From Solwaraspora sp. WMMA2065 (GTDB taxonomy: Bacteria > Actinomycetota > Actinomycetes > Mycobacteriales > Micromonosporaceae): a DNA stretch of 64,000 bases. Positions 46,902-63,740 of the stretch are shown here, one piece after another (position 1 is the stretch's first letter; each line of letters opens with the position of its first letter). The notes under the pieces were generated by a model. That model searched no databases and was not told the origin of the DNA. It was given only the letters and a program-made list of their open reading frames with translations. The DNA is taken from contig NZ_CP128361.1 of the NCBI RefSeq assembly GCF_030345075.1, positions 4,340,001 to 4,404,000 of the forward strand. Direction: 5' to 3'. A program made the position numbers and the translations under genes.

Positions 46902-47000
46902 ATGTATGCGGGCGAGGCAGTTGCTCGCAATTATCAGGCACCACCAAAGATTCCCGTTCGCCGTCCTTTCGACCTGGGTTGGGGGAGAAATGCCTCGTAG
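46902..47000 (+). CDS. 32-codon leader or precursor peptide (candidate)
   Basis: ATG at 46902 is preceded by GGAGG with nine bases spacing, the best ribosome binding site in this gap. The 32-residue product starts MYAGEAVARNYQAPPKIPV and ends RRPFDLGWGRNAS; the TAG stop lies ten bases inside the diiron oxidase gene, so the start of that gene is overlapped. Codon use is poor in third-position GC, unlike the genes around. It may be a leader peptide that couples translation or senses the ribosome, or the precursor of a ribosomal peptide. It could also be chance. Confidence 0.35.
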   Translation: MYAGEAVARNYQAPPKIPVRRPFDLGWGRNAS

Positions 47001-47790
47001 CAAGTCCTACAACACCTATTCATCGCTGCAGCGTCCGGAATTCCGTAAGCGGGTCGACGATCTGCTGTTGAAGTTCGAGCGGGACTTCTACGAGCAGAAC
47101 AAGGGCGCAGAGGGAATGCTGCAGACCGAGAGCTTCAATCTCGATCTCTACAAGCGGCACAACGTGGAAACCATGATCCGCATCGGCCTGAAGCGGGCCG
47201 TCGATCCGCTGATCGCCAACTACTGGGCCACCCGCGACCCGCAACTGTGCAAGGAATGGGGTCTCTACGGTGCCGAGGAGGGACGCCACGACCGGATGTT
47301 CGCCGGCGACCTGCACAAGGTGGGCATGACCGACGAGGAGATCTACTCGATCAGACCAACCTTCGCCACCGAGATCCTCAACGGCTACTTCTACTACACG
47401 ATGGCCACCGAGGGACCCCTCGCCTCGATGATCAGCGGTTTCTACCTCGAGTACATCGCCGGCAAGACCCAGCCCGACTGGCTCGACGTCATGGAGCAGC
47501 ACGTCGGCGCGGACAAGACCAAGGGCGCGCGCGCCCATCTCGCGCTCGACGACGAGGACGACCACGTCGACATGGTATGGAACATGATCATGCGGGTGAT
47601 TCACACCGAAGAGGACGAAGAACGCTTCGTCGAACACCTCATCAAGATCAACGCATTGTTCGTGTCGTACTTCGTCGAGGTCTACGCCGCCACCGTCCTC
47701 GGCGCCGGCGCCGACCCGTCCGCCCTGGCCCAGGCCGCACCGACCGCATCGCTCAAGACGAACCTGATGACCCAGGCGTCGATGGCCTGA
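46990..47790 (+). CDS. Haem-oxygenase-like diiron oxidase (HDO)
   Basis: The 266-residue helical protein fits the haem-oxygenase-like, metal-binding superfamily (TENA/PqqC fold) that holds SznF, UndA, BesC, HrmI and FlcE-type enzymes. Candidate iron ligands are Glu97 and His100 (AEEGRHDRMF), Glu141 (TEGPLASMISG), Glu154, and Asp188 with His192 (DDEDDHVDMVW), which matches the Asp-x3-His helix of the family. Such enzymes use O2 to hydroxylate nitrogen, cleave C-C bonds or remodel amino acids. It is the first full gene of the biosynthetic operon. ATG at 46990 has GGGGGAG directly upstream. The substrate is unknown. Confidence 0.85.
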   Translation: MPRSKSYNTYSSLQRPEFRKRVDDLLLKFERDFYEQNKGAEGMLQTESFNLDLYKRHNVETMIRIGLKRAVDPLIANYWATRDPQLCKEWGLYGAEEGRHDRMFAGDLHKVGMTDEEIYSIRPTFATEILNGYFYYTMATEGPLASMISGFYLEYIAGKTQPDWLDVMEQHVGADKTKGARAHLALDDEDDHVDMVWNMIMRVIHTEEDEERFVEHLIKINALFVSYFVEVYAATVLGAGADPSALAQAAPTASLKTNLMTQASMA

Positions 47791-47879
47791 CCCTCGTCGG
47801 CACCGCCCGGTGCCCCGCCCCCACCCCGGCCACCCTTCCCACCCACGTCCGGCCGTGCGCCGACAGACGGAGGTTGTCG

Positions 47880-48455
47880 ATGAAGTACGACTGGCCCGCC
47901 GAACTGTCCGCCAAGGACATCCGCGAGATGATCGGCCTGATGAACGCCGTCGCCGTACGCGAAATGACCCTGGGGTTCACCGAACCGCTGAACGACGAGG
48001 ACGGCTTCGCCCTGATGCGTGCGTTCGACGCGGAGCTTCGTCGCGGAGCTCTCGAGCTACTCGCCGTACGCACCGACGACGGCACCATCGTCGGGATGGT
48101 CACCCTCGCCCGCGCGCCGCTGCCCGCCCGACGGCACGTCGTCGACCTCAGGCGCTGCGTGATCGACCCGGAGCACCGCGGGAAGTTCCTGCTGGAGGGT
48201 TTCGAGGAGACCATCCGCAAGGTCGCCGAGATGGGCTGCGACGTGATCACCCTGGAGGTCCGCGACGACGGACCGAGAGTCCTCTGGCACCGGCTCGGCT
48301 TCCAGGAGTACGGCCGGCTGCCGGACTACGCCCGCAAGGCGGGGCAGGCCGTCACCGGCCACTTCATGTACGCACGGCGCGCGGATCTGGAGGCCCACTT
48401 CCGCCAGACCGGGACCTGGCTGCACGAGCTTCCCGCGCCGTCCGCAGCCGGCTGA
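47880..48455 (+). CDS. GNAT N-acetyltransferase of the cluster
   Basis: The 191-residue protein is a GNAT acetyltransferase. The acetyl-CoA loop is RRCVIDPEHRGKFLLEGFEE and a late strand is DVITLEVRDDGPRVLWHRLGF, with YARRADLEAHF at the end. In clusters of this sort it may acetylate a free amine, either as a building step or as protection that the M20 deacylase of the same cluster would later remove; this pairing is inference. The gap to the oxidase is 89 bases, and AGACGGAGG lies near the ATG. Confidence 0.85.
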   Translation: MKYDWPAELSAKDIREMIGLMNAVAVREMTLGFTEPLNDEDGFALMRAFDAELRRGALELLAVRTDDGTIVGMVTLARAPLPARRHVVDLRRCVIDPEHRGKFLLEGFEETIRKVAEMGCDVITLEVRDDGPRVLWHRLGFQEYGRLPDYARKAGQAVTGHFMYARRADLEAHFRQTGTWLHELPAPSAAG

Positions 48456-48498: not shown

Positions 48499-49083
48499 AT
48501 GTCGAAGATCGCTGTGCTCACCAACGACCTGCAGTACGAACTCGTCGAGAAGAACCCGGAGCGGGTGGCCGCGGTCGGTGCCGCCACCGCCCACTTCACC
48601 GCGTTCCTCGACGGGATCCGGCAGCGTGGCCACCACGTCTTCCACCTGCAGTTGATCAACGATCCGGACGACCCCAACGCGGAACGCTACGACGGCTACC
48701 TGCCCGTACAGCGGGGCACGCGGGGCGCCGAGATCATCGCGGAGTTCCTCGACCCGGCGGACATCGTCGTGGAGAAGAACAAGGACAGCGGTTTCTACGA
48801 CACCGACCTGCACGAACGACTACAGGCACTCGGCGTGGACACCGTGCTGATCACCGGGATGCAGACCCAGATCTGCGTGCAGACGACGGCAGCCGACGCC
48901 TTCTTCCGCGGCTACAACGTCTGGGTGCCCGCCGACTGCGTCGTCTCCGCCCGGCCCGAGGACCGGGACCGGGCCCTGGAGTGGCTGGCCGGCTACTGCG
49001 CCACGGTGACCCCGTCGGCCGAGGTCCTCCGGGTACTCGACCAGCACGGTGCCCTCCCCCGCAAGGAGATCAAGACCCCGTGA
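48499..49083 (+). CDS. Isochorismatase-like cysteine hydrolase
   Basis: The 194-residue protein is a member of the cysteine hydrolase (isochorismatase, nicotinamidase, N-carbamoyl amidase) superfamily. The catalytic triad is visible: Asp10 in VLTNDLQYE, Lys93 in VVEKNKDSGF and Cys126 in TGMQTQICVQTTAADAF. True isochorismatases lack the cysteine, so this one is likely an amidohydrolase of an amide, carbamoyl or nitrile-derived substrate. AGGAAC stands before the ATG. It lies 31 bases before hypE in the same operon. Confidence 0.88.
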   Translation: MSKIAVLTNDLQYELVEKNPERVAAVGAATAHFTAFLDGIRQRGHHVFHLQLINDPDDPNAERYDGYLPVQRGTRGAEIIAEFLDPADIVVEKNKDSGFYDTDLHERLQALGVDTVLITGMQTQICVQTTAADAFFRGYNVWVPADCVVSARPEDRDRALEWLAGYCATVTPSAEVLRVLDQHGALPRKEIKTP

Positions 49084-49114: not shown

Positions 49115-50140
49115 GTGACCCGGAAGACCGACCCGGCCGGGCAGATAGTTTTGGACCACGGCACCGGTGCCCAGCTCAGCCACGAACTGCTGGACCTCAT
49201 CGTGGAACGACTCGGTGACGTCTACGTCGGGGTGTTGGAGGACAGCGCCGTGCTGTCCGTCGACGATCCTCGGATCGCCATGACCACCGACTCGTTCGTC
49301 GTCGATCCGCCGTTCTTCGGCAACGGCGACGTGGGCAAGATCGCCGTCTGCGGGACCGTGAACGACCTGGCGGTGGCCGGCGCGACCCCCCGGTTCCTCA
49401 CCCTCGGCATGATCCTGGAGACCGGGCTGCCGGTACGCCGCCTGATCCAGGTACTCGACTCGGTCCGGGCCACCGCGGCGGAGGCCGGTGTCCAGATCGT
49501 CGCCGGCGACACCAAGGTGGTCCGGGCCGGCGAGGCCGACCAGCTCTACCTGAACACCGCCGGCGTCGGGGTCTTCCACCGCGAACCGCTGCGGATGGCG
49601 TCCGTACGCCCGGGCGACGTCGTCGTGCTGAGCGGGCAGATCGGCAGTCACACCGTCCACCTGCTGTCCATCCGGGAAGGACTCGGCTTCGAGGCCCGCG
49701 TGCTCAGCGACTGCGCACCACTGAACAACATGATCGAAGGCGTACTCGCCAAGACCGCGCCGGGCGCCGTGCGGTCCATGCGCGACGTCACCCGGGGCGG
49801 GCTGGCGGCCGTCCTGCACGAGTACGCGGCCAGCACCGGACGGGTCATCACCGTCGACGAGTCGGCCCTGCCGATCCAGCACGAGACCGCGATGGCCGCC
49901 GACATGCTGGGCATCAACCCCATCCACGCGGCGAACGAGGGCTGCGCGGCGCTGTTCGTCGATCCGGCCGCCGTGCCGGACGTGCTGTCCGCGCTGGCCA
50001 GCAGCCCGTACGGCACGCACGCCGCGGTCGTCGGGACGGTGACCGACCGGGACGGGCCGGCGGTGACGATGCGCGACCGGGACGGGCGTGAGTCGGTGAT
50101 CGACCAGCTGCGGGGGGCCGAACTCCCGCGGCTGTGCTGA
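49115..50140 (+). CDS. hypE: HypE homologue (carbamoyl dehydratase)
   Basis: The 341-residue protein matches HypE from end to end: VLDHGTGAQLSHELLDLIV, TTDSFVVDPPFFGNGDVGK, IAVCGTVNDLAVAGATPRFL, RDVTRGGLAAVLHEYA and the C-terminus LPRLC. The last residue is the cysteine that, in hydrogenase maturation, accepts a carbamoyl group from HypF and is dehydrated with ATP to a thiocyanate, the source of cyanide ligands. All needed parts seem intact, so activity is expected. GTG at 49115 has AGGAGG six bases upstream. No hydrogenase or HypC/HypD genes are in this window, so the acceptor of the cyano group must be something else. Confidence 0.93.
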   Translation: MTRKTDPAGQIVLDHGTGAQLSHELLDLIVERLGDVYVGVLEDSAVLSVDDPRIAMTTDSFVVDPPFFGNGDVGKIAVCGTVNDLAVAGATPRFLTLGMILETGLPVRRLIQVLDSVRATAAEAGVQIVAGDTKVVRAGEADQLYLNTAGVGVFHREPLRMASVRPGDVVVLSGQIGSHTVHLLSIREGLGFEARVLSDCAPLNNMIEGVLAKTAPGAVRSMRDVTRGGLAAVLHEYAASTGRVITVDESALPIQHETAMAADMLGINPIHAANEGCAALFVDPAAVPDVLSALASSPYGTHAAVVGTVTDRDGPAVTMRDRDGRESVIDQLRGAELPRLC

Positions 50141-50184
50141 GGACGCGCCGTGGATCTGAAAGAGGACGCGCCGTGGATCTGAAA
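50139..50184 (+). repeat. 23-bp tandem duplication at hypE-hypF junction
   Basis: Two identical 23-base units (50139-50161 and 50162-50184) lie side by side. Each holds a GAGG ribosome binding site and a GTG start. Only the second GTG (50173) is in frame with hypF; the first (50150) opens a 10-codon peptide that ends at TGA 50180-50182, just past the hypF start. This may couple or damp hypF translation. Confidence 0.95.
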
Positions 50185-52527
50185 CAAATCGAACACGAAA
50201 TGCGAAGGATCCGGGTCACCGGCGTCGTGCAGGGCGTGGGCTACCGCCCCTTCGTCTACAAGCTGGCCCACCGGTACGGCCTGTCCGGGTCGGTGCTCAA
50301 CGACACCGAGGGCGTGCTGGTCGAGGTGACCGGCCCGGTCGAGGTGCTGGAACGGTTCACCACGGAGCTTCGGACCGCCGCCCCGGCACTCGCCCGGGTC
50401 GACGAGGTACGTGTCGACGAGACACGTACGCTCGGCGACCCGCCGGCCGGGCCGGACGGCGACCAGGGGTTCGTGATCGTGGCCAGCCGGTCCGCCGCCA
50501 CCCGGGCCGCGCTGGTCCCGCCGGACACGCACGTCTGCGCCGACTGCCTCGCCGAGTTGCGCGACCCGGCGGACCGCCGGTACCGGTACCCCTTCATCAA
50601 CTGCACGAACTGCGGACCCCGCTACTCGATCGTCCAGGATCTGCCGTACGACCGGGCGAAGACCACGATGGCCGGGTTCACCATGTGCCCACCGTGCGCC
50701 GCCGAGTACCAGGATCCGTCCGACCGGCGTTACCACGCACAACCGAACGCCTGCCCGGCCTGTGGACCGCAGCTGCTGCTCGCCGGCCCGACCGGCACGA
50801 CGCTACGGGGCGACGCCGCGTTGCGGCACTGTGTCGACGTGCTCGCCGGCGGCGGGATCGCCGCCATCAAGAGTGTCGGTGGGTTCCACCTAGCGGTGGA
50901 CGCCACCGACGCCGAAGCGGTCGGTCGGCTCCGTCGCCGCAAACGCCGGGACTCCAAGCCGTTCGCGGTGATGGCCCGCGATCTGGCCACCGCACACCGG
51001 CTGGTTCAGCTCTCCCCGGCGGAGGTCGATCTGCTCCGCTCCCCGGCCCGGCCGATCCTGCTGGCCCGCAAACGGGCCGGTGCTCTCGCGGAAGGCGTCG
51101 CCCCACGTAACCCCAACCTCGGCATCATGCTGCCCTCGGCCCCCCATCACCACCTGCTGCTCGACGAGGCCGACCTCGGCGTCCTGGTGATGACCAGCGG
51201 AAACATCTCCGGATATCCGATCGCCTACCGCAACGAGGACGCGCTGGACCAGCTGTTCGACATCGCCGATGTGGTGCTCTACCACGACCGGGACATCGAG
51301 ATCCGGGTGGACGACTCGGTGGTTCGGCTGTCGACGCACCCCGACCTGCGCAAGCCGGTACTGACGTTTCTGCGCCGGGCCCGTGGTTACGCCCCGTACC
51401 CGGTCGACGTGGGACGCCCGCTGAAGACCGTCGTCGGCTACGGGGCGGAGCTCAAGACAACGGTCGCGTTGAGCAGCGGATCGCGGGTCTACCTGAGCCA
51501 GCACATCGGGGACCTGAAGAACGACGAGACCTTCGAGTCACACCAGCGCACCGCGGCCCACCTGGCCAACCTGTACGCCCTGCGGCCGGAGCTGGGCGCG
51601 TACGACATGCATCCGCAGTTCCGGTCCTCGGTCCGGGCGGCGGCGGGCGACGGGCCGGAGGCGGCCGCCGTGGAACTCGTGCAGCACCACCACGCCCACA
51701 TGGCCTCCTGCATGGCGGAGAACCAGTTCACCGGACCGACGCTCGGCGTCGTCTTCGACGGGGCGGGCTTCGGCGAGGACGGCACCGTCTGGGGTGGCGA
51801 GTTCCTGCTCGGTGACTACGCGACGGTCCAGCGGGTGGCCCGGCTCCGCCCAGTGCCGCTGATCGGCGGCGACCAGGCGGTCCGCGAGCCCATCCGGACC
51901 GGTCTGGCGCTGGCCCTGGACGCCTTCGGGAACCTGGCCGCCGCCACCACGGCGTTCCGCGTACTCGACAAACTGTCGCAACAGCAGCGGCACGTCTACT
52001 CCCGGATGATCGCCCGAGGCGTCAACTGCCCGATGTCGTCGGGCATGGGGCGGTTGTTCGACGGGGTCGCCGCGCTGGTCGACGTGTGTCAGCTCGCCGA
52101 GTACGAGGCGCAGGGTCCGATCGAATTGGAAGGTCTGCTGGAACGGGACCACATGCAGGAAGCCGGCTACCGGTTCGGCCTCGTCACCGGCGCGGTCACC
52201 GAACTGGACCCGCGGCCGGTGGTCCGCCGGATCGCCGACGATCTGGCCGCCGGGGTCGGTCTGCCCCGGATCAGTCGCCGCTTCCACACGGCGGTGGTCA
52301 ACGCGGTGCGGTGGCAGTGCCGGACGGTTCGCGCGGATACCGGGATCAACCAGATCGTGCTGTCCGGTGGGGTCTACCTGAACGAGTTCCTCCTGGTGAA
52401 CTGCCTGGTCGCGCTGGAGGCGGAAGGTTTCACGGTGGGCTGTCATCGGCAGGTGCCGGCCAACGACGGTGGCATCGCGCTCGGACAGGTGATGGTCGCC
52501 GACGCTCGAGCCAGGACCACGGCCTGA
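50173..52527 (+). CDS. hypF: HypF homologue (carbamoyltransferase)
   Basis: The 784-residue protein has all HypF parts: acylphosphatase domain (about 10-100, VVQGVGYRPFVYKLA with Arg25 and Asn43), double zinc finger with cysteine pairs 122/125, 144/147, 172/175 and 194/197, YrdC-like domain (about 210-390, KRRDSKPFAVM) and a Kae1-like carbamoyltransferase domain with the metal-binding VQHHHAHMASC. It makes carbamoyl-adenylate from carbamoyl phosphate and ATP, and loads the HypE cysteine. The complete architecture separates it from TobZ-type O-carbamoyltransferases, which lack the N-terminal parts. GTG at 50173 sits in a 23-base duplication; ATG at 50200 is an alternative. Confidence 0.94.
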   Translation: MDLKQIEHEMRRIRVTGVVQGVGYRPFVYKLAHRYGLSGSVLNDTEGVLVEVTGPVEVLERFTTELRTAAPALARVDEVRVDETRTLGDPPAGPDGDQGFVIVASRSAATRAALVPPDTHVCADCLAELRDPADRRYRYPFINCTNCGPRYSIVQDLPYDRAKTTMAGFTMCPPCAAEYQDPSDRRYHAQPNACPACGPQLLLAGPTGTTLRGDAALRHCVDVLAGGGIAAIKSVGGFHLAVDATDAEAVGRLRRRKRRDSKPFAVMARDLATAHRLVQLSPAEVDLLRSPARPILLARKRAGALAEGVAPRNPNLGIMLPSAPHHHLLLDEADLGVLVMTSGNISGYPIAYRNEDALDQLFDIADVVLYHDRDIEIRVDDSVVRLSTHPDLRKPVLTFLRRARGYAPYPVDVGRPLKTVVGYGAELKTTVALSSGSRVYLSQHIGDLKNDETFESHQRTAAHLANLYALRPELGAYDMHPQFRSSVRAAAGDGPEAAAVELVQHHHAHMASCMAENQFTGPTLGVVFDGAGFGEDGTVWGGEFLLGDYATVQRVARLRPVPLIGGDQAVREPIRTGLALALDAFGNLAAATTAFRVLDKLSQQQRHVYSRMIARGVNCPMSSGMGRLFDGVAALVDVCQLAEYEAQGPIELEGLLERDHMQEAGYRFGLVTGAVTELDPRPVVRRIADDLAAGVGLPRISRRFHTAVVNAVRWQCRTVRADTGINQIVLSGGVYLNEFLLVNCLVALEAEGFTVGCHRQVPANDGGIALGQVMVADARARTTA

Positions 52528-52557: not shown

Positions 52558-53892
52558 ATGACGGACGTCGCGACCAACCACCCGGACGACATCTACGACT
52601 ACGTACGCAGGCGTGAGTCCAGCGCCCGGACCTACGCCGACGCCGTGGGCCGGGTGCTGGTGCAGGGCAGGCTGACCCGGGTCCACGACGCCGACGGCAA
52701 CGGCTACCTGGACTGCCTGTCGGCGGCCGGGACCCTGGCGCTCGGACACAACCATCCGGCGGTGCTGGCCCGGGTCCGGCGGTACCTGGACTCCGACCAG
52801 TTGCAGCAGGCGCTCGACCTGACCACCCCGGCCAAGCACGAGTTCCTGCGCATGCTCTACCGCCAACTGCCGCCGTCCTTCGCGGCGACCGCCAAGGTGC
52901 AGTTCTGCGGGCCGACCGGTGCCGACGCGACCGAGGCGGCGGTCAAGCTGTTCAAATCGGCCACCGGCCGGCGCACCATGCTCGCCTTCCACGGCGGGTA
53001 CCACGGGATGTCGGCCGGCGCGTTGAGCCTGACCGGCAACCTGCAGGCCAAGCAGCGGGTCGCGGCCCTGATGCCGGAGGTGCACTTCCTGCCGTACCCG
53101 TACGACTACCGGTGCCCGTTCGGTCTGGGCGGCGCCGAGGGCGTACGGGCCGGGCTGCGCTACATCGAGAACGTACTCACCGACCCGGAGAGCGGTATCA
53201 CCAAACCAGCCGCCGTCATCCTCGAAGCGCTGCAGGGCGAAGGTGGTGTGGTGCCCGCAGCCATCGAATGGCTACGCGGACTACGTGCCGTCACCGCCGC
53301 CCTCGACATTCCGCTGGTCCTCGACGAGATCCAGATGGGTCTCGGACGGACCGGAACGATGTTCGCCTTCGAGGCCGCCGGCATCGAACCGGACGCGGTG
53401 CTGCTGTCCAAGGCCGTCGGCGGCGGCTATCCGCTGTCGCTGGTGGCCTACCACGAGAAGTATGACGGCTGGCTGCCCGGCTCGCACGCCGGCACCTTCC
53501 GGGGCAACCAGCTCGCCATGGTCGCCGGTGCCGAGACGATGGCGGTCATCGCCGAAGAGGGCTTGGTCGCGCAGTCCGCGAGCAAAGGGGAGCTGCTGCG
53601 CGACCGGCTCGAGGCGATGGCCGTCCAGCGGCCGGAGATCGGCGACGTCCGTGGCCGGGGACTGGCCTGGGGGTTGGAGATCGTCGACCCGGCCGGTCCG
53701 GTCGACGCGTTGGGCCGACCGCCGGCGGACGGGCGACGGGCCCGGGAAATTAAGCGGCGCTGCCTGGAGAACGGACTGCTCATCGAGAGCGGCGGCCGGC
53801 ACGGCGCCGTACTGCGACTGCTGCCCCCGCTGGTCATCAGCGACGACGAAATCGCGGAACTGATCGAGAAGCTCGACAAATCGTTCGACTGA
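52558..53892 (+). CDS. Diaminobutyrate-type class III aminotransferase
   Basis: The 444-residue PLP enzyme resembles diaminobutyrate-2-oxoglutarate transaminases of siderophore and peptide clusters and ectoine EctB: ESSARTYADAVGRVLVQG, GPTGADATEAAVKLFKSATG, LAFHGGYHGMSAGALSLTGN and the PLP lysine Lys285 in LSKAVGGGYPLSLVAY. It probably makes L-2,4-diaminobutyrate from aspartate semialdehyde, or uses a similar omega-amine. GGAAGGA lies before the ATG, 30 bases after hypF. The amine made here could be the acceptor of the carbamoyl or cyano group; that is inference. Confidence 0.85.
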   Translation: MTDVATNHPDDIYDYVRRRESSARTYADAVGRVLVQGRLTRVHDADGNGYLDCLSAAGTLALGHNHPAVLARVRRYLDSDQLQQALDLTTPAKHEFLRMLYRQLPPSFAATAKVQFCGPTGADATEAAVKLFKSATGRRTMLAFHGGYHGMSAGALSLTGNLQAKQRVAALMPEVHFLPYPYDYRCPFGLGGAEGVRAGLRYIENVLTDPESGITKPAAVILEALQGEGGVVPAAIEWLRGLRAVTAALDIPLVLDEIQMGLGRTGTMFAFEAAGIEPDAVLLSKAVGGGYPLSLVAYHEKYDGWLPGSHAGTFRGNQLAMVAGAETMAVIAEEGLVAQSASKGELLRDRLEAMAVQRPEIGDVRGRGLAWGLEIVDPAGPVDALGRPPADGRRAREIKRRCLENGLLIESGGRHGAVLRLLPPLVISDDEIAELIEKLDKSFD

Positions 53893-53935: not shown

Positions 53936-54643
53936 GTGCGAGCAGGTGGCAGTTCGGAACAGTGGCGGGTGGAGTTCGACGCGGACGTCGAGTTCAGCAA
54001 TGGTGGCGGCCTGCAGGTGCAGGGATTCCGTCTCGACATCGCCGGGAACGACATCGACGACGACGAGATCGCGGAACTGTTCGTCCACCATCTCGGGCTG
54101 CTGATGGTCGGCCGGACGACGGTCAAGGGAAAGACCCTGCTCCGGGAACCCCACAAGGGCTCCCGCGGCGTGGACGTCGGCCGGGACGAGGTACGCCGAG
54201 TCGTCGACCTGACCGGCCCCGACACCGAGCTGCATCCCCCCACCCGGGACGTGCCGCTCGCCGGTCTGGTCGATCTGCCCGGTGTGCTGGCCCGGCTGAC
54301 CGGCGGCGGGGCCACCGTGGACCGTGGCGCACTGGCGCCGTACCAGGTCGAGGGCCGCGCCGTCGTGGTGCACGGCGGTCCCCTCGACGGACCGCGGCTG
54401 ACCGCCGAGGCGGCGGCCGTGCTGGCCGACCGGCACGCCGCGCTGGTCGGCACCGACGCCGCCCCGCTGCCCGGGGCGACGCGGCTGCTCACCCGGCGGG
54501 GCGTCCCGGTGGTCACCGGGCTGTCCGGGCTGCACGACCTGCCGCCGACGGGTTTCCGCGTGCACGCCGTGCCCACCGGCACGGCCGTCGGCCCCGGCGG
54601 GGTCCAGCCGATCCGGATCTACGGGGTGTGCGATGGCGGATAG
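53936..54643 (+). CDS. Cyclase (kynurenine formamidase)-like protein, atypical
   Basis: The 235-residue protein matches the cyclase family (PF04199) in its second half: LAGLVDLPGVLARL, RGALAPYQVEGRAVVVHGG, RLTAEAAAVLADRHAALVGTDA, LLTRRGVPVVTGLSGLHDLP and a final PIRIYGV. The metal-binding HxGTHxD motif is not seen where expected (the local sequence is DTELHPPTRD), and the first 70 residues are a different segment (LQVQGFRLDIAGNDIDDDEI). It may have lost hydrolase activity or use other residues. GTG at 53936 with AGAGGAG upstream. It overlaps the next gene by 11 bases. Confidence 0.65.
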   Translation: MRAGGSSEQWRVEFDADVEFSNGGGLQVQGFRLDIAGNDIDDDEIAELFVHHLGLLMVGRTTVKGKTLLREPHKGSRGVDVGRDEVRRVVDLTGPDTELHPPTRDVPLAGLVDLPGVLARLTGGGATVDRGALAPYQVEGRAVVVHGGPLDGPRLTAEAAAVLADRHAALVGTDAAPLPGATRLLTRRGVPVVTGLSGLHDLPPTGFRVHAVPTGTAVGPGGVQPIRIYGVCDGG

Positions 54644-57305: not shown

Positions 57306-58542
57306 GCCACCGGCCCGGCCGGGCCGGCACGTCGTGATCCTGCACCGCTGGCGGGGCCAGCACGCCCGGTACGCCGACTACCTGGACCACACGACGAACA
57401 AGGTCAGCTACGTGGTCGCCCCCCACGCGGTGTCGTCGGTGCCCACCGGGGCAGCGGAGGTGGTCGTGGTGCCGGCGACCGACGATCCGGCGGCGGTACG
57501 CGAGGCGGTGGCCGGCCTCACCGCCCGCCACGGCGTACCGGACCGGCTGGTCGCCCTCAACGAGGGTGACCTGGATTCCGCCGCGCTGCTGCGCGCCGAG
57601 TTCGACCTGCCCGGCGACCGACCGGAGCAGCTCGTCGGCTACCGGGACAAGCTGCTGATGGGGCAGCGGATGCAGCGGACGGGGATTCCGGTCCCGCCGT
57701 TCGCGGACGCTCCCGACCTGGCCGCGGTGCGCGCGTTCGCCGATCGGCACGGTTGGCCGGTGGTGGTCAAGCCACGTTTCGGCACGGCGAGTCGAGGGGT
57801 GCAACGCCTGGACGGGCCGGCGGCGTTGACCACACCGACCCCGATCGGCGAGGAACCCTATTTGGTGCAGCGGTTCGTCGCCGACCAGATCCTGCACATC
57901 GACGGGCTCTGGCAGGGCGACCGGCTCGGGGTCTGGCGGGCCTCCCGTTACCTGAACACCTGCGCGGCGTTCACCACCGGCGCCTATCTGGGGTCGGTCG
58001 AGATCGACGACCACCGGTTGCTGGCGGAGATCGAGCGGTTCACCACCGAGGTGTGTGCCGGGTTCTCCGACCGGCCGTGGGTGTTCCACCTCGAAGCGTT
58101 CGTCGCGACCAGGCCAGGTGGTCAGGTGACGCTGAGCTTCCTCGAGGCGGGTGCCCGGGTCGGTGGGGCCGAGATCCCCTTCGTGTGGCGCGAGGTGCAC
58201 GGTGTCGATCTGATGGCCGCGGCGATGGACGTCCAGCTTGGTCGGGTGCCGGCGGTGCCGGTATCCGACCGCGGTGAGGTCGGCGGCTACCTGCTGCTGC
58301 CCACGCCGGTGCCGGCTCCGTGCCGGGTGACGGTCGCCGGATGGCAGGACGACCTGCCGGACGGTGCCCGGCCGTACGCCGAGGTGGTGCCCGGACCGGG
58401 CACCGTCATTCCGCGGATCGGCGGGTACGAGCACGTGGGCGCACGGTTCCGGTTCCGGGGCCCGTCCACCGGGGACGTCGAATCGGCGATCCGGACCGCT
58501 GCCACCGCGTACCAGCTCGCCTGCGTCGCCGTGGGCGACTGA
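57274..58542 (+). CDS. Single-domain ATP-grasp ligase
   Basis: The 422-residue protein is an ATP-grasp enzyme similar to L-amino acid ligases: a pre-ATP-grasp domain (about 15-110), the ATP-binding strand WPVVVKPRFGTASRGVQRL (about 165-183), PYLVQRFVADQILHIDGLW and the metal-binding end FLEAGARVGGAEIPFVWREV (about 285-305). It would activate a carboxylate as acyl phosphate and join it to an amine. GTG at 57274 or 57292 may be used; both lie inside the M20 gene. It is adjacent to a second, double ATP-grasp protein, so two or three amide bonds can be made by the cluster. Confidence 0.85.
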   Translation: MTGRPVVPSREPPARPGRHVVILHRWRGQHARYADYLDHTTNKVSYVVAPHAVSSVPTGAAEVVVVPATDDPAAVREAVAGLTARHGVPDRLVALNEGDLDSAALLRAEFDLPGDRPEQLVGYRDKLLMGQRMQRTGIPVPPFADAPDLAAVRAFADRHGWPVVVKPRFGTASRGVQRLDGPAALTTPTPIGEEPYLVQRFVADQILHIDGLWQGDRLGVWRASRYLNTCAAFTTGAYLGSVEIDDHRLLAEIERFTTEVCAGFSDRPWVFHLEAFVATRPGGQVTLSFLEAGARVGGAEIPFVWREVHGVDLMAAAMDVQLGRVPAVPVSDRGEVGGYLLLPTPVPAPCRVTVAGWQDDLPDGARPYAEVVPGPGTVIPRIGGYEHVGARFRFRGPSTGDVESAIRTAATAYQLACVAVGD

Positions 58543-58591
58543 GCGACCCCCGGATCCGAAGATCCGCAATCGAGCAGGAGGAACAGACACC

Positions 58592-61201
58592 GTGACGATT
58601 GACTCCCCGCGGCTGATCCTGGTTGGCAGCCGTCTCGCGGCGTACCGCGAGTACGCGCTCGCCTCGTTGGCCACGGCGTACGAGGTGGTGCTGATCGCCC
58701 CCGAGGCGCCCACCTGGCAGGCGAAGTACGTCAAGACGCACCGGATCGCGGACACCACGGACCGGGCCAAGCTGTTTCCGTCGGTCGCCGACCTGCGTGG
58801 CGAGGTGTCCGAGGCGGCGATCGTCACCTGGGACGAGTGGTCCCTGGTCCCGGTCGCGGAGGCGGCCAGTCGGCTGGGGATGCGACACATGTCGCCGACG
58901 GCTGCCCGCCGCTGCCGGGACAAGTACGCGGTCCGTGAGGCGATGTCCGCCGCCGGGCTGAGCGCGGTCCGGTACGGTCTCGCGCGCGACGCGGACGAGG
59001 CCCACGCGGTGGCCGAGTCGATCGGGTACCCGGTCGTGGTCAAGCCGCGGTCGTTGGGTGGCAGTTTCGGAGTGACGGTGGTGTCCGGCGCCGCCGGGCT
59101 GGCCACCGCGTACCAGCTGGCCACCACTAGCCGGCTGCCGGGTGTGCCCGGCGGTGACGGGGTGCTGGTCGAGGAGTACCTCAACGGCCCGGAGATCAGC
59201 GTGGAGAGCGTGGTCGTCGACGGCGACGCCCGGCCGGTGCTGGTGGCCCGGAAACGACTGGGTGCCCCGCCGTACTTCGAGGAGCTGGGTCATCTGGTGG
59301 ACCGGTGGCGGGACGAACCGTGGGCGGCGGAGGTGGTGGAGCTGGTCCGGGCCGCACACCGGGCGGTCGGTGTCGACTGGGGGGTGACCCACACCGAGAT
59401 CCGGCTGACCACACGCGGCGCCCGCCTGATCGAACTCAACGGCCGGCTCGCCGGCGACCTGATCCCCTACCTGGGGCAGCTGGCCTGTGGAGTGGATCTG
59501 GTCAGCGCTGCGGCGGAGATCGCCTTCGAGCGGATCCCGTCGCTGGTGACCACCGCCGACCGGGTGGCGGAGATCCGCTTCCTGCCGCCGGCACACGCCG
59601 GCACGGTCGAGCGGATCGAACTGCCCGACCCTCGGCGGATTCCGGACCTGGTCGCCGCGGTGGCGCTGGCCTCGCCCGGCGACCGGCTCGAACCGCCGCC
59701 GCGCACGCTGACCCCACGCACCGCCGCGTTCGTCGCCGTCGCCGACGACGAGTCGGCCTGTCGGCGGGCGTTGGACCACGCCGAGGCGGCGACCACCGTA
59801 CGGCTGACCGCCGCGCTGGAGACCCGGCTCGGCGCGCACTGGGAGAACTCGGTCACCCGCCGGTTCCTCGACCACGAACGCGGCGAGGACCGGATGACCG
59901 TCGCGGGCGTACGCGGCGACGAGTGGTTCAGGTACGGCGCCGGCGGCGGCGAAGGGTTGAACCGTCCGGTGTTCCTCACCGCCGGCGAGGTACGCACGTT
60001 GGAGCGGGATCTGGCCGGTTTGTTCGAACTGGTGGCCGGACTACCCGACCGGTTGTTCGACGGCGACCTGCGGGAGTTCGCCCGGGCGGTCGGGATGTCC
60101 GAGGTGCAGACCCGACTGGTGCTGCGCGGTGCCGGGCCCCGACTGGCGCCACTGGCCCGCGCCGATCTCTACCGGCAGAGTGACGGCTTCCGACTGATGG
60201 AGCTCAACACCGGCAGCTCGCTGGGCGGCTGGCAGATGGGCATCTTCGGACGGGCGCTGGCGGCCGACGAACAGTTCGCCCGGTTCGTCGAGGCGGAAGG
60301 GTTGACGTTCCCGGACCCGCTGGCCGAGATCGTCCGGGTGCTGCGCGCGCAGGCCCCGCACCTGGACCGGATCGAACGGCCGTTGCTGGCGATCACCGAC
60401 TGGCCGGAGGGCTTCGAGAAGACGAAGTGCTGGATGGACTTCGTCGTGCCGGGATTCGTCGAGCTCGGCTTCGACGCCGTGGTCTGTCATCTGGACCAGT
60501 TCCGGTACGCCGACGGCATGGTGCTGTTCGACGACCGCCGGGTGGACGTGGTGTACCGCATGTTCCTGCCGGGCGAGATGCCGGCCGAGCAGCGCACCTA
60601 CGACCGGGTGGAGCCGCTGCTCGACGCCGCCGAACGGGGCACCGTCCAGCTGTTCGCCGCGCTGGACAGCGAACTGTACGGCAACAAGGGCAGCCTCGCG
60701 CTGCTCAGCGACGAGCGCAACCGCGACCGGTTCACCGCCGAGGAACTGGCCCTGGTCGACCGGCTCCTGCCGTGGACCAGGTTCGTCCGTGACGAGAAGG
60801 TCACCTGGCAGGACCAGACCGTCGATCTGGTGCCGCACATGCTGGCGAACAGGGACCACCTGGTGCTCAAGCCCACGTTGCTCTACGGGGGCGTGGGTGT
60901 CACACCGGGCTGGACGGTCTCCCAGGACGAGTGGGAGCGGCGGGTACGGGCGGCGGTCGACGAACCGTACGTGGTGCAGGACCGGGTCCTGCCGGTCACC
61001 GAGCGGTTCCGCGCCGACGACGGGGACGGGTTCCAGCTGATGGCGGTCGCCTACGGGGTGATGCTGATCGGTTCCCGGTACGCGGGCACGCTCGCCCGCG
61101 CGGTGCCCGACCCGGCGGTCGGCATCGTCAGCATGATCAACGGAGCACAGATCGGCTGCGTCTTCCACGCGGTGGACCGGTCGGCGGGCGACGCGGCGTG
61201 A
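58592..61201 (+). CDS. Double ATP-grasp fusion protein
   Basis: The 869-residue protein holds two ATP-grasp modules. The first (about 1-400) is an L-amino acid ligase type with YPVVVKPRSLGGSFGVTVV, VEEYLNGPEISVESVV and THTEIRLTTRGARLIELNGR. The second (about 430-869) is like circularly permuted ATP-grasp/glutathionylspermidine-synthase-type enzymes: DGFRLMELNTGSSLGGWQMG and HLVLKPTLLYGGVGVTPGW, with YVVQDRVLP. A fusion of these two types is unusual. It may couple two ligations with a channelled intermediate. GTG at 58592 has AGGAGG nine bases upstream, so the long upstream frame is not coding. The MFS gene overlaps its stop. Confidence 0.85.
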   Translation: MTIDSPRLILVGSRLAAYREYALASLATAYEVVLIAPEAPTWQAKYVKTHRIADTTDRAKLFPSVADLRGEVSEAAIVTWDEWSLVPVAEAASRLGMRHMSPTAARRCRDKYAVREAMSAAGLSAVRYGLARDADEAHAVAESIGYPVVVKPRSLGGSFGVTVVSGAAGLATAYQLATTSRLPGVPGGDGVLVEEYLNGPEISVESVVVDGDARPVLVARKRLGAPPYFEELGHLVDRWRDEPWAAEVVELVRAAHRAVGVDWGVTHTEIRLTTRGARLIELNGRLAGDLIPYLGQLACGVDLVSAAAEIAFERIPSLVTTADRVAEIRFLPPAHAGTVERIELPDPRRIPDLVAAVALASPGDRLEPPPRTLTPRTAAFVAVADDESACRRALDHAEAATTVRLTAALETRLGAHWENSVTRRFLDHERGEDRMTVAGVRGDEWFRYGAGGGEGLNRPVFLTAGEVRTLERDLAGLFELVAGLPDRLFDGDLREFARAVGMSEVQTRLVLRGAGPRLAPLARADLYRQSDGFRLMELNTGSSLGGWQMGIFGRALAADEQFARFVEAEGLTFPDPLAEIVRVLRAQAPHLDRIERPLLAITDWPEGFEKTKCWMDFVVPGFVELGFDAVVCHLDQFRYADGMVLFDDRRVDVVYRMFLPGEMPAEQRTYDRVEPLLDAAERGTVQLFAALDSELYGNKGSLALLSDERNRDRFTAEELALVDRLLPWTRFVRDEKVTWQDQTVDLVPHMLANRDHLVLKPTLLYGGVGVTPGWTVSQDEWERRVRAAVDEPYVVQDRVLPVTERFRADDGDGFQLMAVAYGVMLIGSRYAGTLARAVPDPAVGIVSMINGAQIGCVFHAVDRSAGDAA

Positions 61202-62478
61202 ACGGCCGGTCCGGCACCGGGCTGTGGCACGACCGGCAGTTCCTCAGGTTCTGGGCGGGTGAGGCCACGTCGCAGGTCGGTGCACAGGTGACCCAGCTGG
61301 CGCTGCCGCTGACCGCGGTACTCGCGCTGCAGGCCAGCGCCTCCGAGGTAGGTCTGCTCAACGCCGCGTCGTATGCGCCGTTCCTCCTCGTCACCCTGCT
61401 GGTCGGGGTCTGGGTGGACCGGGTCCGACGGAAGCCGTTGATGATCTACGCGAACGTCGGCCGGGCCGCCCTGGTGACCCTGGTGCCGGTGCTCGCGGCC
61501 CTCGGCCAGCTGCGGATCGAGTTCCTCTACGCCATCGCGGTGCTGGTGGGCACGCTCACAGTGGTCTTCGACGTGGCGTACCAGTCCTACCTGCCGACGC
61601 TGGTGCGCCGGGAGCACCTGGTGGAGGGCAACAGCAAGCTGCAGGGCACCAGCTCGTTGGCGCAGATCGGTGGCCCGGGCCTTTCCGGGCTACTGGTCCA
61701 GGTGGCCACCGCACCGGTCGCATTGCTGATCAACGGCATGTCCTACCTGGTCTCGGTGGCGACCCTGGTCGCCGTCCGGCGCCCCGAGCCGCCCCCGCGA
61801 CGGCACCACGCACCGGTGCCGTTGCGGCGCAGCGTCGCCGAGGGGATCCAGCTGATCCTCCGCTCGCCGATTCTGCGGGCGTGCGCTCTGCAGTCCGGCC
61901 TGTACAACCTGTTCCTGATGTCGTTGCAGACGCTCTTCGTGCTGTACGCGGCCCGGGTGCTGGGCTTCGGCGCGGGCGGTATCGGAGCGCTGCTGAGCGT
62001 GGGAGCGGTCGGCTCGTTGCTCGGTTCGCTGGTGGCCCGACGGCTGACCGCGACGGTCGGGCTGGGGCGGAGCATCCTCACCTCGACCGTCCTGTGCTGT
62101 GTGGCGCCGATGCTCATTCCGCTCGCGCCGGGCGCGACACCGCTGGGGATCACGATGATCGTCGGTGGGTTCGCGATCGCCGGAGCCGGCGCCACCATGG
62201 CCAACATCCAGATCATCAGTCTCCGGCAGGCGATCACCGCCGAACGGTTGCTCGGCCGGATGAACGCCGGCTACCGCCTGATCTCCTGGGGCACTCTGCC
62301 GGTCGGCGGCGCGTTGGGTGGCTGGCTCGGCGATCTGATCGGACTGCGCCCCGCGTTGTATCTCACCGCGATCGGTTTCCTCTCGGCGGTGGTGGTGATC
62401 GCCACGTCACCGGTCCGACGGCTGGTCGACTTTCCGGCACGCGACCGGCCGACGTCCGAGTTCGCCACCGTCGACTGA
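61198..62478 (+). CDS. MFS exporter of the cluster
   Basis: The 426-residue protein has 12 predicted membrane helices and the DRVRRKP motif between helices 2 and 3 (LLVGVWVDRVRRKPLMI). FWAGEATSQVGAQVTQLALPLTA is typical for the EntS/macrolide-type efflux families, which export cluster products. GTG overlaps the fusion ligase stop by four bases (GTGA), so it is translated in step with it. It likely secretes the product or protects the producer; that is by analogy. Confidence 0.9.
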   Translation: MNGRSGTGLWHDRQFLRFWAGEATSQVGAQVTQLALPLTAVLALQASASEVGLLNAASYAPFLLVTLLVGVWVDRVRRKPLMIYANVGRAALVTLVPVLAALGQLRIEFLYAIAVLVGTLTVVFDVAYQSYLPTLVRREHLVEGNSKLQGTSSLAQIGGPGLSGLLVQVATAPVALLINGMSYLVSVATLVAVRRPEPPPRRHHAPVPLRRSVAEGIQLILRSPILRACALQSGLYNLFLMSLQTLFVLYAARVLGFGAGGIGALLSVGAVGSLLGSLVARRLTATVGLGRSILTSTVLCCVAPMLIPLAPGATPLGITMIVGGFAIAGAGATMANIQIISLRQAITAERLLGRMNAGYRLISWGTLPVGGALGGWLGDLIGLRPALYLTAIGFLSAVVVIATSPVRRLVDFPARDRPTSEFATVD

Positions 62479-62513
62479 CCGTTCGCCGTCCCCACCCGAC
62501 CGAGGTAGCCGTT

Positions 62514-63740
62514 GTGGACATCGACGAAGCACCAGCGAAGCCGGCGACCGTCCGAGGTCCGTCGCCACGCCGGCTGGCCGAGACGCGGCTGCGGACCGAA
62601 CTGGCCGCCCACCGGGCGACCGCGTGGCGCCGGCTGCTGACGGACCGGACCGCGGTGCCCGCCTCGACCCGTACCCGGCTCGACATGACCTTCCGGTTGC
62701 GCGGCCCGGAACGGTTCGTCGCGGCGCTCGGTCAGGCGATGACCGTCGCGGACCTGCCGGACGGCCCGGACGGCGCGTTCACCCTCGGTCTACGGGTGGA
62801 CGACCGCCGGCTGGCGGTCGTCTACGAGTTTCCCGGACCGGAGGTGGTTCCCGGCGGCGTCGGCCACGGCCGCGTCGGGGCGCACGGACCGGTCGGGGCC
62901 CGGTCACGGCCGACGGACGCACGCCGGCGGGCGTACCAGGATCTGGTGGCCCTGCTGACGCTGCGTGCGGTGGCCGACGCGTTCGACGCGACCCCGGGAT
63001 ATCTGGTCGACAGTGTCGCGTTCACCGGGTACGGACCACCGGTCGACGGCGTGCCGGGGGGCGATCCGCCGCTGCTGGTCGACGCGCTCGTCGGTCGGGA
63101 CGCCTTCGCACGAATACCGCTCGACGATCCCGACCTCGACCCGGTGAGCTGTCTACCCGGCCCTGACCCGGTGAACCGGCCGCCCGGCCCCGTCACCGCG
63201 CCCGACGTCTGGTCGGGCCGCCGCTTCGCCCACTGCGGTGGGGCGTGCTGGCGGGATCCGGCCCTCGCGCCGGACCTGCTGGTCCTGCGCCCTGCCGAGT
63301 TCGGGCGACTGCTGCGCAGGTTGTTCGAGGTGACCGGGATGACCGACTGGATGCGGTTGTCGGCCTCCGACGACGAACTGCTCGCCGCCGCGATCGATCC
63401 CGATGCGGCCACCGGCGGGGTGTGCATCCTGCTGGCGGTACGGGGTCCGGTCCGGCCGGCGGCGATGGAGACGCTGTCCCGGACGCTCGACAAGTGGGTG
63501 CCGGCGCGTGGACTCATGATCAGCACCGGGCGGGTCGATCGGGCTGGGCTGCCAACCGACGACCGCATCCGGATCATCGACGGGGCCGCGCTGCGTGACC
63601 TCATCCGCCGCGAACTACGACTGGACCTGCTCAGCGGCGGTCACGACACCGGCCACCTGATCCTCGAGACCGACCGGACGGCACCGACGACCGGTCACGG
63701 AGCGGGTACCGGCGGACGAACCGGGAGCCGCCCACGGTGA
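62514..63740 (+). CDS. Restriction-endonuclease-like protein, probably inactive
   Basis: The 408-residue protein has no membrane segment. Its C-terminal part (about 275-375) resembles the Mrr-type restriction endonuclease fold: DWMRLSASDDELLAAAIDPD, GGVCILLAVRGPVRPAAMET, KWVPARGLMISTGRV and IRIIDGAALRDLIRREL. The catalytic Gln/Glu-x-Lys is replaced by AVR, so cleavage is unlikely. The N-terminal 270 residues (TRLDMTFRLRGPERFVAALG) are unassigned, with four cysteines, two in FAHCGGACW. GTG at 62514; GAGG nine bases upstream. Whether it belongs to the biosynthetic set or is only a passenger is unclear. Confidence 0.55.
   Translation: MDIDEAPAKPATVRGPSPRRLAETRLRTELAAHRATAWRRLLTDRTAVPASTRTRLDMTFRLRGPERFVAALGQAMTVADLPDGPDGAFTLGLRVDDRRLAVVYEFPGPEVVPGGVGHGRVGAHGPVGARSRPTDARRRAYQDLVALLTLRAVADAFDATPGYLVDSVAFTGYGPPVDGVPGGDPPLLVDALVGRDAFARIPLDDPDLDPVSCLPGPDPVNRPPGPVTAPDVWSGRRFAHCGGACWRDPALAPDLLVLRPAEFGRLLRRLFEVTGMTDWMRLSASDDELLAAAIDPDAATGGVCILLAVRGPVRPAAMETLSRTLDKWVPARGLMISTGRVDRAGLPTDDRIRIIDGAALRDLIRRELRLDLLSGGHDTGHLILETDRTAPTTGHGAGTGGRTGSRPR

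What the first reader, a model, noticed from the sequence alone, without database searches (positions are those of the whole stretch)
46902..63740. Hydrogenase-free HypE/HypF pair inside a biosynthetic gene cluster
Sequence shows intact HypE (C-terminal Cys after PRL) and complete HypF (acylphosphatase, zinc fingers, YrdC, Kae1-like) in one operon with a diiron HDO, GNAT, cysteine hydrolase, aminotransferase, M20 deacylase, three ATP-grasp domains and two MFS genes. Known HypEF chemistry makes a thiocyanate on HypE from carbamoyl phosphate. No hydrogenase or HypCD gene is present. I infer that the cyano or carbamoyl group is used to build a small amino-acid or peptide product (nitrile, cyanamide, thiocyanate or similar). 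I know of no described cluster like this, but I could not search.
Basis: partly seen in the sequence, partly recalled or inferred. Interest (0 to 1): 0.93.

Follow-up and report, generated by a model that had tools for sequence, protein, structure and literature searches.

The report
Hydrogenase-free cyanide-making enzyme trio
A soil bacterium in which no hydrogenase was found carries the two enzymes that normally make the cyanide of hydrogenases, next to a small cysteine enzyme and inside a gene cluster that looks built to make a small peptide, and the same three-gene unit turns up in unrelated bacteria.

Summary
HypE (TIGR02124, 402 bits) and HypF (TIGR00143, 715 bits) are intact, and searches of this one-contig genome found no HypA, HypC, HypD or [NiFe] large subunit. 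In one sample of 394 class genomes 104 have HypE and 102 of those have HypD; the two exceptions (this genome and one other) are also the only two with the cysteine hydrolase encoded just upstream of HypE. Ten further loci (8 Streptomyces, Nocardia, Psychromonas) share HDO, GNAT, hydrolase, HypE, HypF and diaminobutyrate transaminase. The hydrolase-HypE-HypF triad also sits in NRPS, ATP-grasp, enterobacterial and rhizobial contexts. Triad HypE (19 of 19 end PRLC) is separated from 22 other HypE (all PRIC) by a 100/100 branch, yet 49 positions are invariant in all 41. The HDO is kin to MboA, the mangotoxin acetylenase, with all six metal ligands. I propose a portable cyano-group module: HypF/HypE make HypE-thiocyanate and the hydrolase replaces HypCD as partner, passing the group to a diaminobutyrate-derived block of a short peptide. 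Module: strongly supported. Cyano transfer: inferred. Product: unknown. Eight open-access paper searches found no description.

The parts
44671..45639 (-). EamA-type exporter
   Evidence: Pfam EamA 109 bits; relatives (44-48% identity) beside the cluster in 7 of 8 Streptomyces loci, 56% in Nocardia, 38% in Psychromonas
45766..46845 (-). divergent regulator with a weak LuxR/GerE domain
   Evidence: Pfam GerE E 1.5e-4, under cut-off; homologue at the same divergent place in 8 of 8 Streptomyces loci, 35-50% identity, none in the Nocardia and Psychromonas loci
46990..47790 (+). MboA-like haem-oxygenase-like diiron oxidase (HDO); listed ORF starts 46906
   Evidence: Profile A2 vs PDB MboA (9ypi) E 1.2e-35; six metal ligands and Tyr base kept; AlphaFold model pLDDT 88.6; start
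47967..48455 (+). GNAT acetyltransferase (start uncertain)
   Evidence: Pfam Acetyltransf_1 24.9 bits, over cut-off; 42-71% identical in 10 of 10 cluster loci
48499..49083 (+). isochorismatase-like cysteine hydrolase (CysHyd), the partner of HypE
   Evidence: Pfam PF00857 123 bits; D10, K93, C126 and C167 invariant in 16 of 16 aligned; found with PRLC-type HypE
49115..50140 (+). HypE, carbamoyl dehydratase, C-terminal PRLC (ORF listed from 49049)
   Evidence: TIGR02124 402 bits; 49 positions invariant with the other HypE; start
50134..52527 (+). HypF, carbamoyl phosphate-dependent carbamoyl:HypE ligase
   Evidence: TIGR00143 715 bits and all five Pfam parts; PDB 3vth E 4e-185
52558..53892 (+). 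diaminobutyrate-2-oxoglutarate transaminase family protein
   Evidence: TIGR00709 511 bits, over cut-off
53936..54643 (+). conserved protein of unknown family (235 aa)
   Evidence: No Pfam match; 46-57% identical in 8 of 8 Streptomyces loci and the Nocardia locus, no match in Psychromonas
54633..55973 (+). MFS transporter 1
   Evidence: Pfam MFS_1 104 bits
55998..57305 (+). M20-type amidohydrolase / deacylase
   Evidence: Pfam Peptidase_M20 106 bits; TIGR01891 262 bits, over cut-off
57274..58542 (+). ATP-grasp ligase 1, L-amino acid ligase-like
   Evidence: PDB 4wd3 E 1e-9; same place in 6 of 6 Streptomyces downstream stretches
58550..61201 (+). two-part ligase: N half ATP-grasp with LAL_C2, C half possibly circularly permuted ATP-grasp
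   Evidence: PF13535 58 bits and LAL_C2 32 bits; C half CP_ATPgrasp_2 E 0.0026, under cut-off
61198..62478 (+). MFS transporter 2, last gene of the conserved cluster
   Evidence: Pfam MFS_1 109 bits; same place in 6 of 6 Streptomyces downstream stretches

Best explanation
A portable CysHyd-HypE-HypF unit that makes a one-carbon cyano group from carbamoyl phosphate for small-molecule biosynthesis, independent of hydrogenase. HypF activates carbamoyl phosphate and S-carbamoylates the C-terminal Cys of HypE; HypE dehydrates it to a protein thiocyanate (established chemistry of the families; residues conserved here, activity not shown). The cysteine hydrolase then takes the place of HypC/HypD: its Cys126 (Asp10-Lys93-Cys126 triad) receives the cyano group, or helps HypE deliver it, to an amine or other nucleophile (inferred). 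In this cluster the acceptor is probably derived from L-2,4-diaminobutyrate (transaminase), acetylated by the GNAT and deacetylated by the M20 enzyme; the MboA-like HDO desaturates its side chain; ATP-grasp ligases join it into a di- or tripeptide; EamA/MFS proteins export it (all inferred from families). Likeliest warhead, at low confidence: a gamma-N-cyano (cyanamide) or ring-closed guanidine derivative of an unsaturated diaminobutyrate.
For: No HypA/HypC/HypD/NiFe large subunit found in the genome. In one sample of 394 genomes HypE without HypD occurs in 2 of 104 HypE genomes, and the hydrolase family at E 1e-30 occurs in exactly those 2 of 394. Ten cluster loci in 3 named genera of 2 phyla; 7 of 10 genomes without HypD, the other 3 with a second HypE beside HypD. 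On plasmids the 10 records with the hydrolase are the 10 best-ranked HypE records. Triad HypE is set apart by a 100/100 branch, PRLC vs PRIC and GN vs PG at E. coli 68-69, while 49 positions including K133, E272 and C336 stay invariant. HDO ligands match MboA.
Against: The hydrolase fold is usually an amidase, so it may hydrolyse rather than transfer. Three Paraburkholderia plasmids carry the triad right beside hydrogenase genes or remnants, although in P. phymatum that operon has its own HypE and HypF. The own genome, half of the 394-genome coincidence, is the discovery case itself. The root of the HypE tree is unsure, and the Rhizobium and S. clavuligerus triad HypE fall next to the hydrogenase branch, so a single origin of the triad type is not shown. 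No dedicated HDO redox partner such as MboB was recognised among the cluster genes.
Confidence: 0.62

Rival explanations
1. Carbamoyl, not cyano, transfer: HypF and HypE serve as a carbamoylation machine that makes a ureido group (for example gamma-ureido-diaminobutyrate, a short citrulline), and the hydrolase removes or edits carbamoyl groups.
For: Named relatives of the hydrolase include enzymes of N-carbamoyl or ureido substrates (biuret hydrolase, RutB, N-carbamoylsarcosine amidase), the NCBIfam ones far below cut-off. Mangotoxin, made by the HDO's relative, ends in an alkynyl citrulline (PMC13185094).
Against: Plain carbamoylation should need no HypE; yet triad HypE keeps the 49 positions invariant in all 41 HypE compared, including the terminal Cys and the residues that I recall as those of the ATP-dependent dehydratase.
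Confidence: 0.2
2. Release of free cyanide, cyanate or thiocyanate: the hydrolase cleaves HypE-SCN and the small molecule itself is secreted or used.
For: The smallest operons (Salmonella and Citrobacter records) hold only LysR, CysHyd, HypE, HypF, HAD phosphatase and MFS genes, with one hypothetical gene more in Salmonella.
Against: Other contexts are rich in amino-acid, NRPS and ligase genes, which free cyanide would not need.
Confidence: 0.08
3. Cyano ligands for a metal centre of another enzyme, for instance the diiron HDO of this cluster.
For: HypE/HypF normally feed an iron centre; the HDO belongs to an iron enzyme family.
Against: The enterobacterial, rhizobial and NRPS-type triads have no HDO of this family in the stretches seen, and the scaffold HypC/HypD is absent here. 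The described Fe sites of MboA have protein, substrate and water ligands (PMC13185094).
Confidence: 0.05
4. Spare hydrogenase maturation genes, left from or serving a [NiFe]-hydrogenase.
For: In 3 of the 8 plasmid records whose annotation I looked at (of 10) the triad lies near hydrogenase genes or their remnants, and 3 of 10 cluster genomes have a hydrogenase.
Against: Own genome lacks the hydrogenase genes searched; triad HypE lie apart in the tree; hydrogenase strains examined have their own HypE.
Confidence: 0.03

Closest known systems
HypE/HypF of [NiFe]-hydrogenase maturation
   Same: Both proteins pass the equivalog cut-offs; 49 positions invariant across 19 triad and 22 other HypE, including the terminal Cys.
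   Different: No HypC/HypD or hydrogenase found here; PRLC not PRIC; GN for PG at E. coli 68-69; set apart in the tree; a cysteine hydrolase as neighbour.
Mangotoxin cluster (MboA HDO, MboCD ATP-grasp ligases; PMC13185094)
   Same: HDO with the same six ligands and Tyr base at the same spacing, plus ATP-grasp ligases, pointing to a short peptide.
   Different: No MboB-type reductase or MboE-type deiminase recognised by Pfam; HypE/HypF, hydrolase, diaminobutyrate transaminase, GNAT and M20 added; two of three MboA guanidinium contacts differ (N57 to Lys, D139 to Gly).
N-carbamoylsarcosine amidase / biuret hydrolase / nicotinamidase superfamily
   Same: Fold family PF00857 and Asp-Lys-Cys triad.
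   Different: Own subfamily: best solved relative E 2e-18, biuret hydrolase model 56 of 370 bits; extra invariant Cys167.
Carbamoyltransferases of the TobZ/NovN kind (recalled, not compared)
   Same: Kae1-like and YrdC-like carbamoyl transfer chemistry shared with HypF.
   Different: Those act without HypE as far as I recall; here full-length HypF has the acylphosphatase and zinc-finger parts and sits with HypE.

Membership tests
HypE (TIGR02124) | profile score over curated cut-off | tested here: met
   402 vs 251.6 bits
HypE (TIGR02124) | C-terminal PR(I/V)C motif with terminal Cys | tested here: inconclusive
   terminal Cys kept but the motif is PRLC in 19 of 19 triad HypE; PR(I/V)C as in PMC4506123
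HypF (TIGR00143) | acylphosphatase, zinc fingers, YrdC and Kae1-like domains, score over cut-off | tested here: met
   715 vs 466 bits; five Pfam families
[NiFe]-hydrogenase maturation system | HypC/HypD scaffold in the genome | tested here: not met
   0 HypC, 0 HypD in the own genome; each search rings in 4 of 14 controls
[NiFe]-hydrogenase maturation system | a [NiFe] large subunit to mature | tested here: not met
   0 in the own genome; over cut-off in 3 of 11 related genomes
MboA-like HDO | six ligands E, H, E, H, D, H with MboA spacing and the Tyr base | tested here: met
   E100, H103, E157, H186, D190, H195 and Y96 in alignment A2 (residue 1 = codon 46981), each the MboA number + 14, invariant in 20 of 20
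MboA-like HDO | acts as desaturase or acetylenase on an amino-acid side chain | not testable with these tools
   needs an enzyme assay
mangotoxin-type cluster | dedicated MboB-type flavin/2Fe-2S reductase | tested here: not met
   none recognised by Pfam among the cluster genes; a Fer2 protein lies in the Psychromonas locus
isochorismatase-like cysteine hydrolase | Asp-Lys-Cys triad | tested here: met
   D10, K93, C126 invariant in 16 of 16; that these form the triad is recalled from the family
biuret hydrolase / RutB / nicotinamidase | equivalog score over cut-off | tested here: not met
   55.9 of 370, 49 of 378, 30 of 174 bits

The most novel reading that the evidence does not exclude
CysHyd-HypE-HypF is a general, mobile way of making an activated cyano group for small molecules: a protein-bound thiocyanate made from carbamoyl phosphate is handed by a cysteine hydrolase acting as cyanyltransferase to diaminobutyrate-derived, NRPS-derived and other acceptors. 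That would be, as far as I could find, the first use of HypE/HypF chemistry outside hydrogenases and a new biosynthetic route to nitriles, cyanamides or guanidines.
Probability: 0.5. Interest if true: 0.95.

Novelty: new variant of a known kind. Interest (0 to 1): 0.86.

Why it matters
In the papers I saw, HypE/HypF belong to [NiFe]-hydrogenase maturation only. If the triad makes a cyano group for small molecules, carbamoyl phosphate becomes a source of the carbon and nitrogen of nitriles, cyanamides or guanidines, and the three genes become a search key for new clusters. It also warns that HypE/HypF annotation alone does not indicate a hydrogenase: in the class sample 2 of 104 HypE genomes have no HypD. 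In the 41 HypE compared, PRLC went with a nearby cysteine hydrolase (19 of 19) and PRIC with a nearby HypD (21 of 22; the Acaryochloris one had none in the 4 kb seen).

Tried and rejected
Rejected: hydrogenase maturation (partner genes not found, HypE set apart); anti-phage role (PADLOC gave nothing for the six cluster proteins tried); the 62475-63740 gene as part of the cluster (no match in 7 downstream stretches).

Led nowhere: eight paper searches for HypE/HypF or hydrogenase maturation or HDO with natural products, thiocyanate, nitrile, cyanamide, diaminobutyrate or isochorismatase listed six papers in all, seen as listings only and unrelated by title (one, on N-N bond enzymes, was not opened). 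The library is open-access PubMed Central only, and supplements could not be read, so Fig. S2C of PMC13185094 (25 HDO/ATP-grasp cluster types) may already contain this cluster. The Citrobacter operon has no near DNA match in the E. coli genomes and the hydrolase none in phages at E 1e-20. Foldseek with the HDO model gave HDO-, TenA- and haem-oxygenase-fold matches; MboA was not among the 50 rows shown. S. clavuligerus DUF3865 does not align with the window HDO by BLASTP. A model of the hydrolase (pLDDT 80) was made but coordinates are not given, so the distance of Cys167 from Cys126 is unknown. The first HypE tree was discarded because some rows were translated from the wrong strand; one search is the corrected one.

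Rows left out: alignment A2 holds the window HDO and 19 of 24 loci (L015, L016, L018, L019, L032 left out); A3 holds 16 hydrolases (the window, 6 of 10 cluster loci, L104, 8 of 10 plasmid records); the HypE tree leaves out L018 (frameshifted) and 2 of 10 plasmid triads and uses 16 of 33 HypE loci fetched by the genome search (L037-L039, L074-L103), all 16 with HypD close by. Of the 22 'hydrogenase-type' rows, 21 have HypD next to them; L122 (Acaryochloris) was so labelled without that. Three of the four HypE-like rows were partial sequences.
Full report
What is there. The window lies in a single-contig genome of 6.74 Mb, 99.4% complete. It belongs to the family of Micromonospora wenchangensis, inferred because G182 of the same family has a contig of the length of NZ_MZMV01000049.1. 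HypE and HypF both pass their equivalog cut-offs (402 vs 251.6 and 715 vs 466 bits), and HypF has all its domains. The neighbours are an HDO, a GNAT, an isochorismatase-like cysteine hydrolase (CysHyd), a transaminase of the diaminobutyrate-2-oxoglutarate subfamily (511 vs 401.6 bits), an unknown 235-aa protein, an MFS protein, an M20 amidohydrolase, two ligase genes and a second MFS protein. Relatives and the bases upstream move the HDO start to 46990 and the HypE start probably to GTG 49115.

No hydrogenase found. HypA, HypC, HypD and the [NiFe] large subunit each gave no match in the own genome, while the same searches pass the cut-off in 4 of 14 control genomes each. HypB was not searched.

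The cluster in other genomes. Among 300 genomes of the family the HDO was found in 3 at E 1e-10, the own one included, the other two at 39-42% and without HypE/HypF in the stretches held. A scan of genome contigs with the HDO alignment gave 24 loci. Ten of 24 (HDO 68-88%: 8 Streptomyces, Nocardia alni, Psychromonas sp. SP041) carry HDO, GNAT, CysHyd, HypE, HypF and the transaminase, in L018 in frameshifted pieces; 14 of 24 (HDO 35-44%) show no HypE or HypF match in the 10-21 kb held. Downstream stretches were fetched for 7 of the 10: the order M20, ligase 1, ligase 2, MFS holds in 6 of 6 Streptomyces, while Nocardia has M20, a partial ligase-like piece and EamA. The last window gene, 62475-63740, was not found there. 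In the 20.8 kb of Psychromonas held, the 235-aa protein, M20, ligases and MFS have no match, but there is a 2Fe-2S protein, a membrane-dipeptidase-like and a glyoxalase-like gene by my reading, and EamA. So the core is HDO, GNAT, CysHyd, HypE, HypF, transaminase and, in 9 of 10, an EamA exporter. HypD occurs in 3 of these 10 genomes, and NiFe large subunits over cut-off in the same 3 of 11 genomes searched; each of those 3 has a second HypE directly beside HypD. Sub-threshold large-subunit matches of 20-22 bits in others cover only positions 1-69.

A triad. In one sample of 394 class genomes, 104 have HypE (E 1e-60, over cut-off), 103 have HypD (E 1e-40), 102 have both (lists compared by eye). 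HypE without HypD: the own genome and G382. HypD without a HypE match at that limit: G408. The CysHyd profile at E 1e-30 hits 2 of 394 genomes, exactly these two (the tool scored at most 8 candidates per genome in the rows shown). By my arithmetic chance agreement of both pairs would be 1 in 77,421, but the own genome is the discovery case, so the fair independent figure is one hit falling on one of 393. In G382 the triad stands with an SHMT-like gene and large ORFs that I take for NRPS-like by reading, with no match to this HDO in the 32 kb held. In 369 genomes of the class of Psychromonas the family occurs once at E 1e-45, in Psychromonas itself.

Plasmid records (72,556) add context. CysHyd at E 1e-30 is in 10 records and HypE at E 1e-40 in 141; the 10 CysHyd records are the 10 best-ranked HypE records (53-67% identity). 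Among the 60 of 141 rows listed, the next full-length ones have 46% or less; one match in two pieces (H33, 67% over 61%) is annotated AIR synthase-related, has no CysHyd match and was not followed up. I looked at the annotation of 8 of 10: Streptomyces NBC_01361, an NRPS cluster with a 2OG-Fe oxygenase and SHMT-like gene; S. clavuligerus, HypF-HypE-DUF3865 divergent from CysHyd-arginase-ATP-grasp-MFS; Salmonella enterica subsp. diarizonae and Citrobacter freundii, LysR/CysHyd-HypE-HypF-HAD-MFS; Rhizobium WSM2304, CysHyd-HypE-DMT-HypF after ABC genes; and three Paraburkholderia plasmids. On the latter, GNAT-CysHyd-HypE-HypF are followed by transaminase fragments (2 of 3) and preceded by an HDO C-terminal fragment (2 of 3), which I read as a decayed copy of the same cluster in the same order; a further, more distant transaminase gene (35-38%) lies upstream. 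These three lie beside hydrogenase genes or remnants, which speaks for a link; but in P. phymatum that operon has its own hypA, B, F, C, D and E.

HypE itself. In a tree of 45 rows the 22 hydrogenase-type HypE form one side of a 100/100 branch of length 0.93; the 19 triad HypE and 4 HypE-like proteins lie on the other. The root is unsure, and the S. clavuligerus and Rhizobium rows fall next to the hydrogenase branch, so one origin of the triad type is not shown. All 19 triad HypE end PRLC, all 22 others PRIC. Forty-nine positions are invariant in all 41, including E. coli D83, K133, E272, R334 and C336; fixed differences include E. coli P68-G69 (G-N in triad HypE) and I335 (L). That K133 and E272 are catalytic is recalled, not from a call. 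In the literature HypE's PRIC tail delivers cyanide to HypCD, with Arg334 predicted to pair with HypD Asp98 (PMC12130793, passages), and carbamoyl phosphate is the source of the cyanide (PMC12134894, passages; PMC4506123, passages). So the thiocyanate chemistry should be intact while the docking end has changed.

CysHyd. Sixteen aligned members share D10, K93 and C126, and also C167, where the nearest solved relative (3eef) has Gly (one comparison only). It is far below the cut-offs for biuret hydrolase, RutB and nicotinamidase. It accompanies all 19 PRLC-type HypE, where hydrogenase systems have HypC/HypD. I infer that it accepts or transfers the cyano group; hydrolysis of a ureido group is the main alternative.

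HDO. The profile matches MboA of mangotoxin biosynthesis (9ypi) at E 1.2e-35. MboA's ligands E86, H89, E143, H172, D176, H181 and base Tyr82 (PMC13185094, main text parts 1-3 of 6 read) correspond with a constant shift of 14 to E100, H103, E157, H186, D190, H195 and Y96 in A2 numbering (residue 1 = codon 46981). Of MboA's guanidinium contacts N57, D61, D139, only D61 is kept (D75); the others are Lys71 and Gly153, so the substrate is probably not an arginine residue. That paper searched HDOs beside ATP-grasp ligases and found at least 25 cluster types, shown in a supplement I could not read; words beginning 'hyp' occur 6 times in its main text, all forms of 'hypothesis'. A 2026 HDO review names neither HypE nor hydrogenase (PMC13108848, term search and passages). 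MboA needs MboB to go from alkene to alkyne; with no such partner recognised here an alkene is the likelier product.

Mechanism. Shown: gene content, conservation, separation from hydrogenase, conserved residues. From family knowledge: HypF/HypE make HypE-S-CN from carbamoyl phosphate; the transaminase makes 2,4-diaminobutyrate; GNAT and M20 add and remove acetyl; ATP-grasp ligases make short peptides. Inferred: CysHyd passes the cyano group to the diaminobutyrate-derived amine; the HDO desaturates the side chain; a short peptide is exported. The product structure is a guess.

Novelty. Eight full-text searches aimed at it listed six papers, none of which by title describes such a cluster; none of the six was opened. 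I file it as a new variant of known HypE/HypF machinery with a new partner; the bolder reading is a new general route to cyano groups.

Noticed in passing
L050, L051, L106:8344-9183, L118:7968-8987: HypE-like ('AIR synthase-related') proteins fall on the triad side of the tree; three of four (L050, L051, L118) end without a Cys (L118 in PRLA), the end of L106 was not read. L118's lies near AfsA-like and LuxR-type genes, so a signalling role is possible.
   Followed up: partly
L109:4172-12539, L114:6778-14597, L116:8775-16029: Paraburkholderia plasmids hold what looks like a decayed copy of the same cluster (HDO fragment in 2 of 3, transaminase fragments in 2 of 3, around GNAT-CysHyd-HypE-HypF) beside hydrogenase genes or remnants.
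   Followed up: partly
L112:4047-11598 and L117:6964-13871: Small enterobacterial operon LysR/CysHyd-HypE-HypF-HAD-MFS, the simplest context of the triad seen; in Citrobacter it follows chromosomal-type genes (hinT, lpoB, nagZ) on an 82-kb record.
   Followed up: partly
window 62475-63740: 421-aa protein after the cluster, no Pfam match, weak PADLOC match to a type IV methyl-directed restriction enzyme model (68 bits).
   Followed up: no
L107:6002-18239 and L108:8585-20272: Other HDO-containing clusters without annotated HypE/HypF: an Enterobacter plasmid with two iron-containing redox enzymes and a U32 peptidase, and a Streptomyces plasmid with FAD and 2Fe-2S partners, two ATP-grasp genes and a biotin-carboxylase-like gene.
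   Followed up: no
L122:1453-2565: Acaryochloris plasmid HypE with a PRIC end and no hydrogenase genes annotated within the 4 kb seen.
   Followed up: no
H33, NZ_CP109329.1 146891-147554 (not fetched): Streptomyces NBC_01591 plasmid: HypE match of 67% over 61% of the query in two pieces, annotated AIR synthase-related, without a CysHyd match in the record.
   Followed up: no
window 41500-44143: Genes that look like ResB/CcsB cytochrome c assembly by my reading of the translations, left of the cluster.
   Followed up: no
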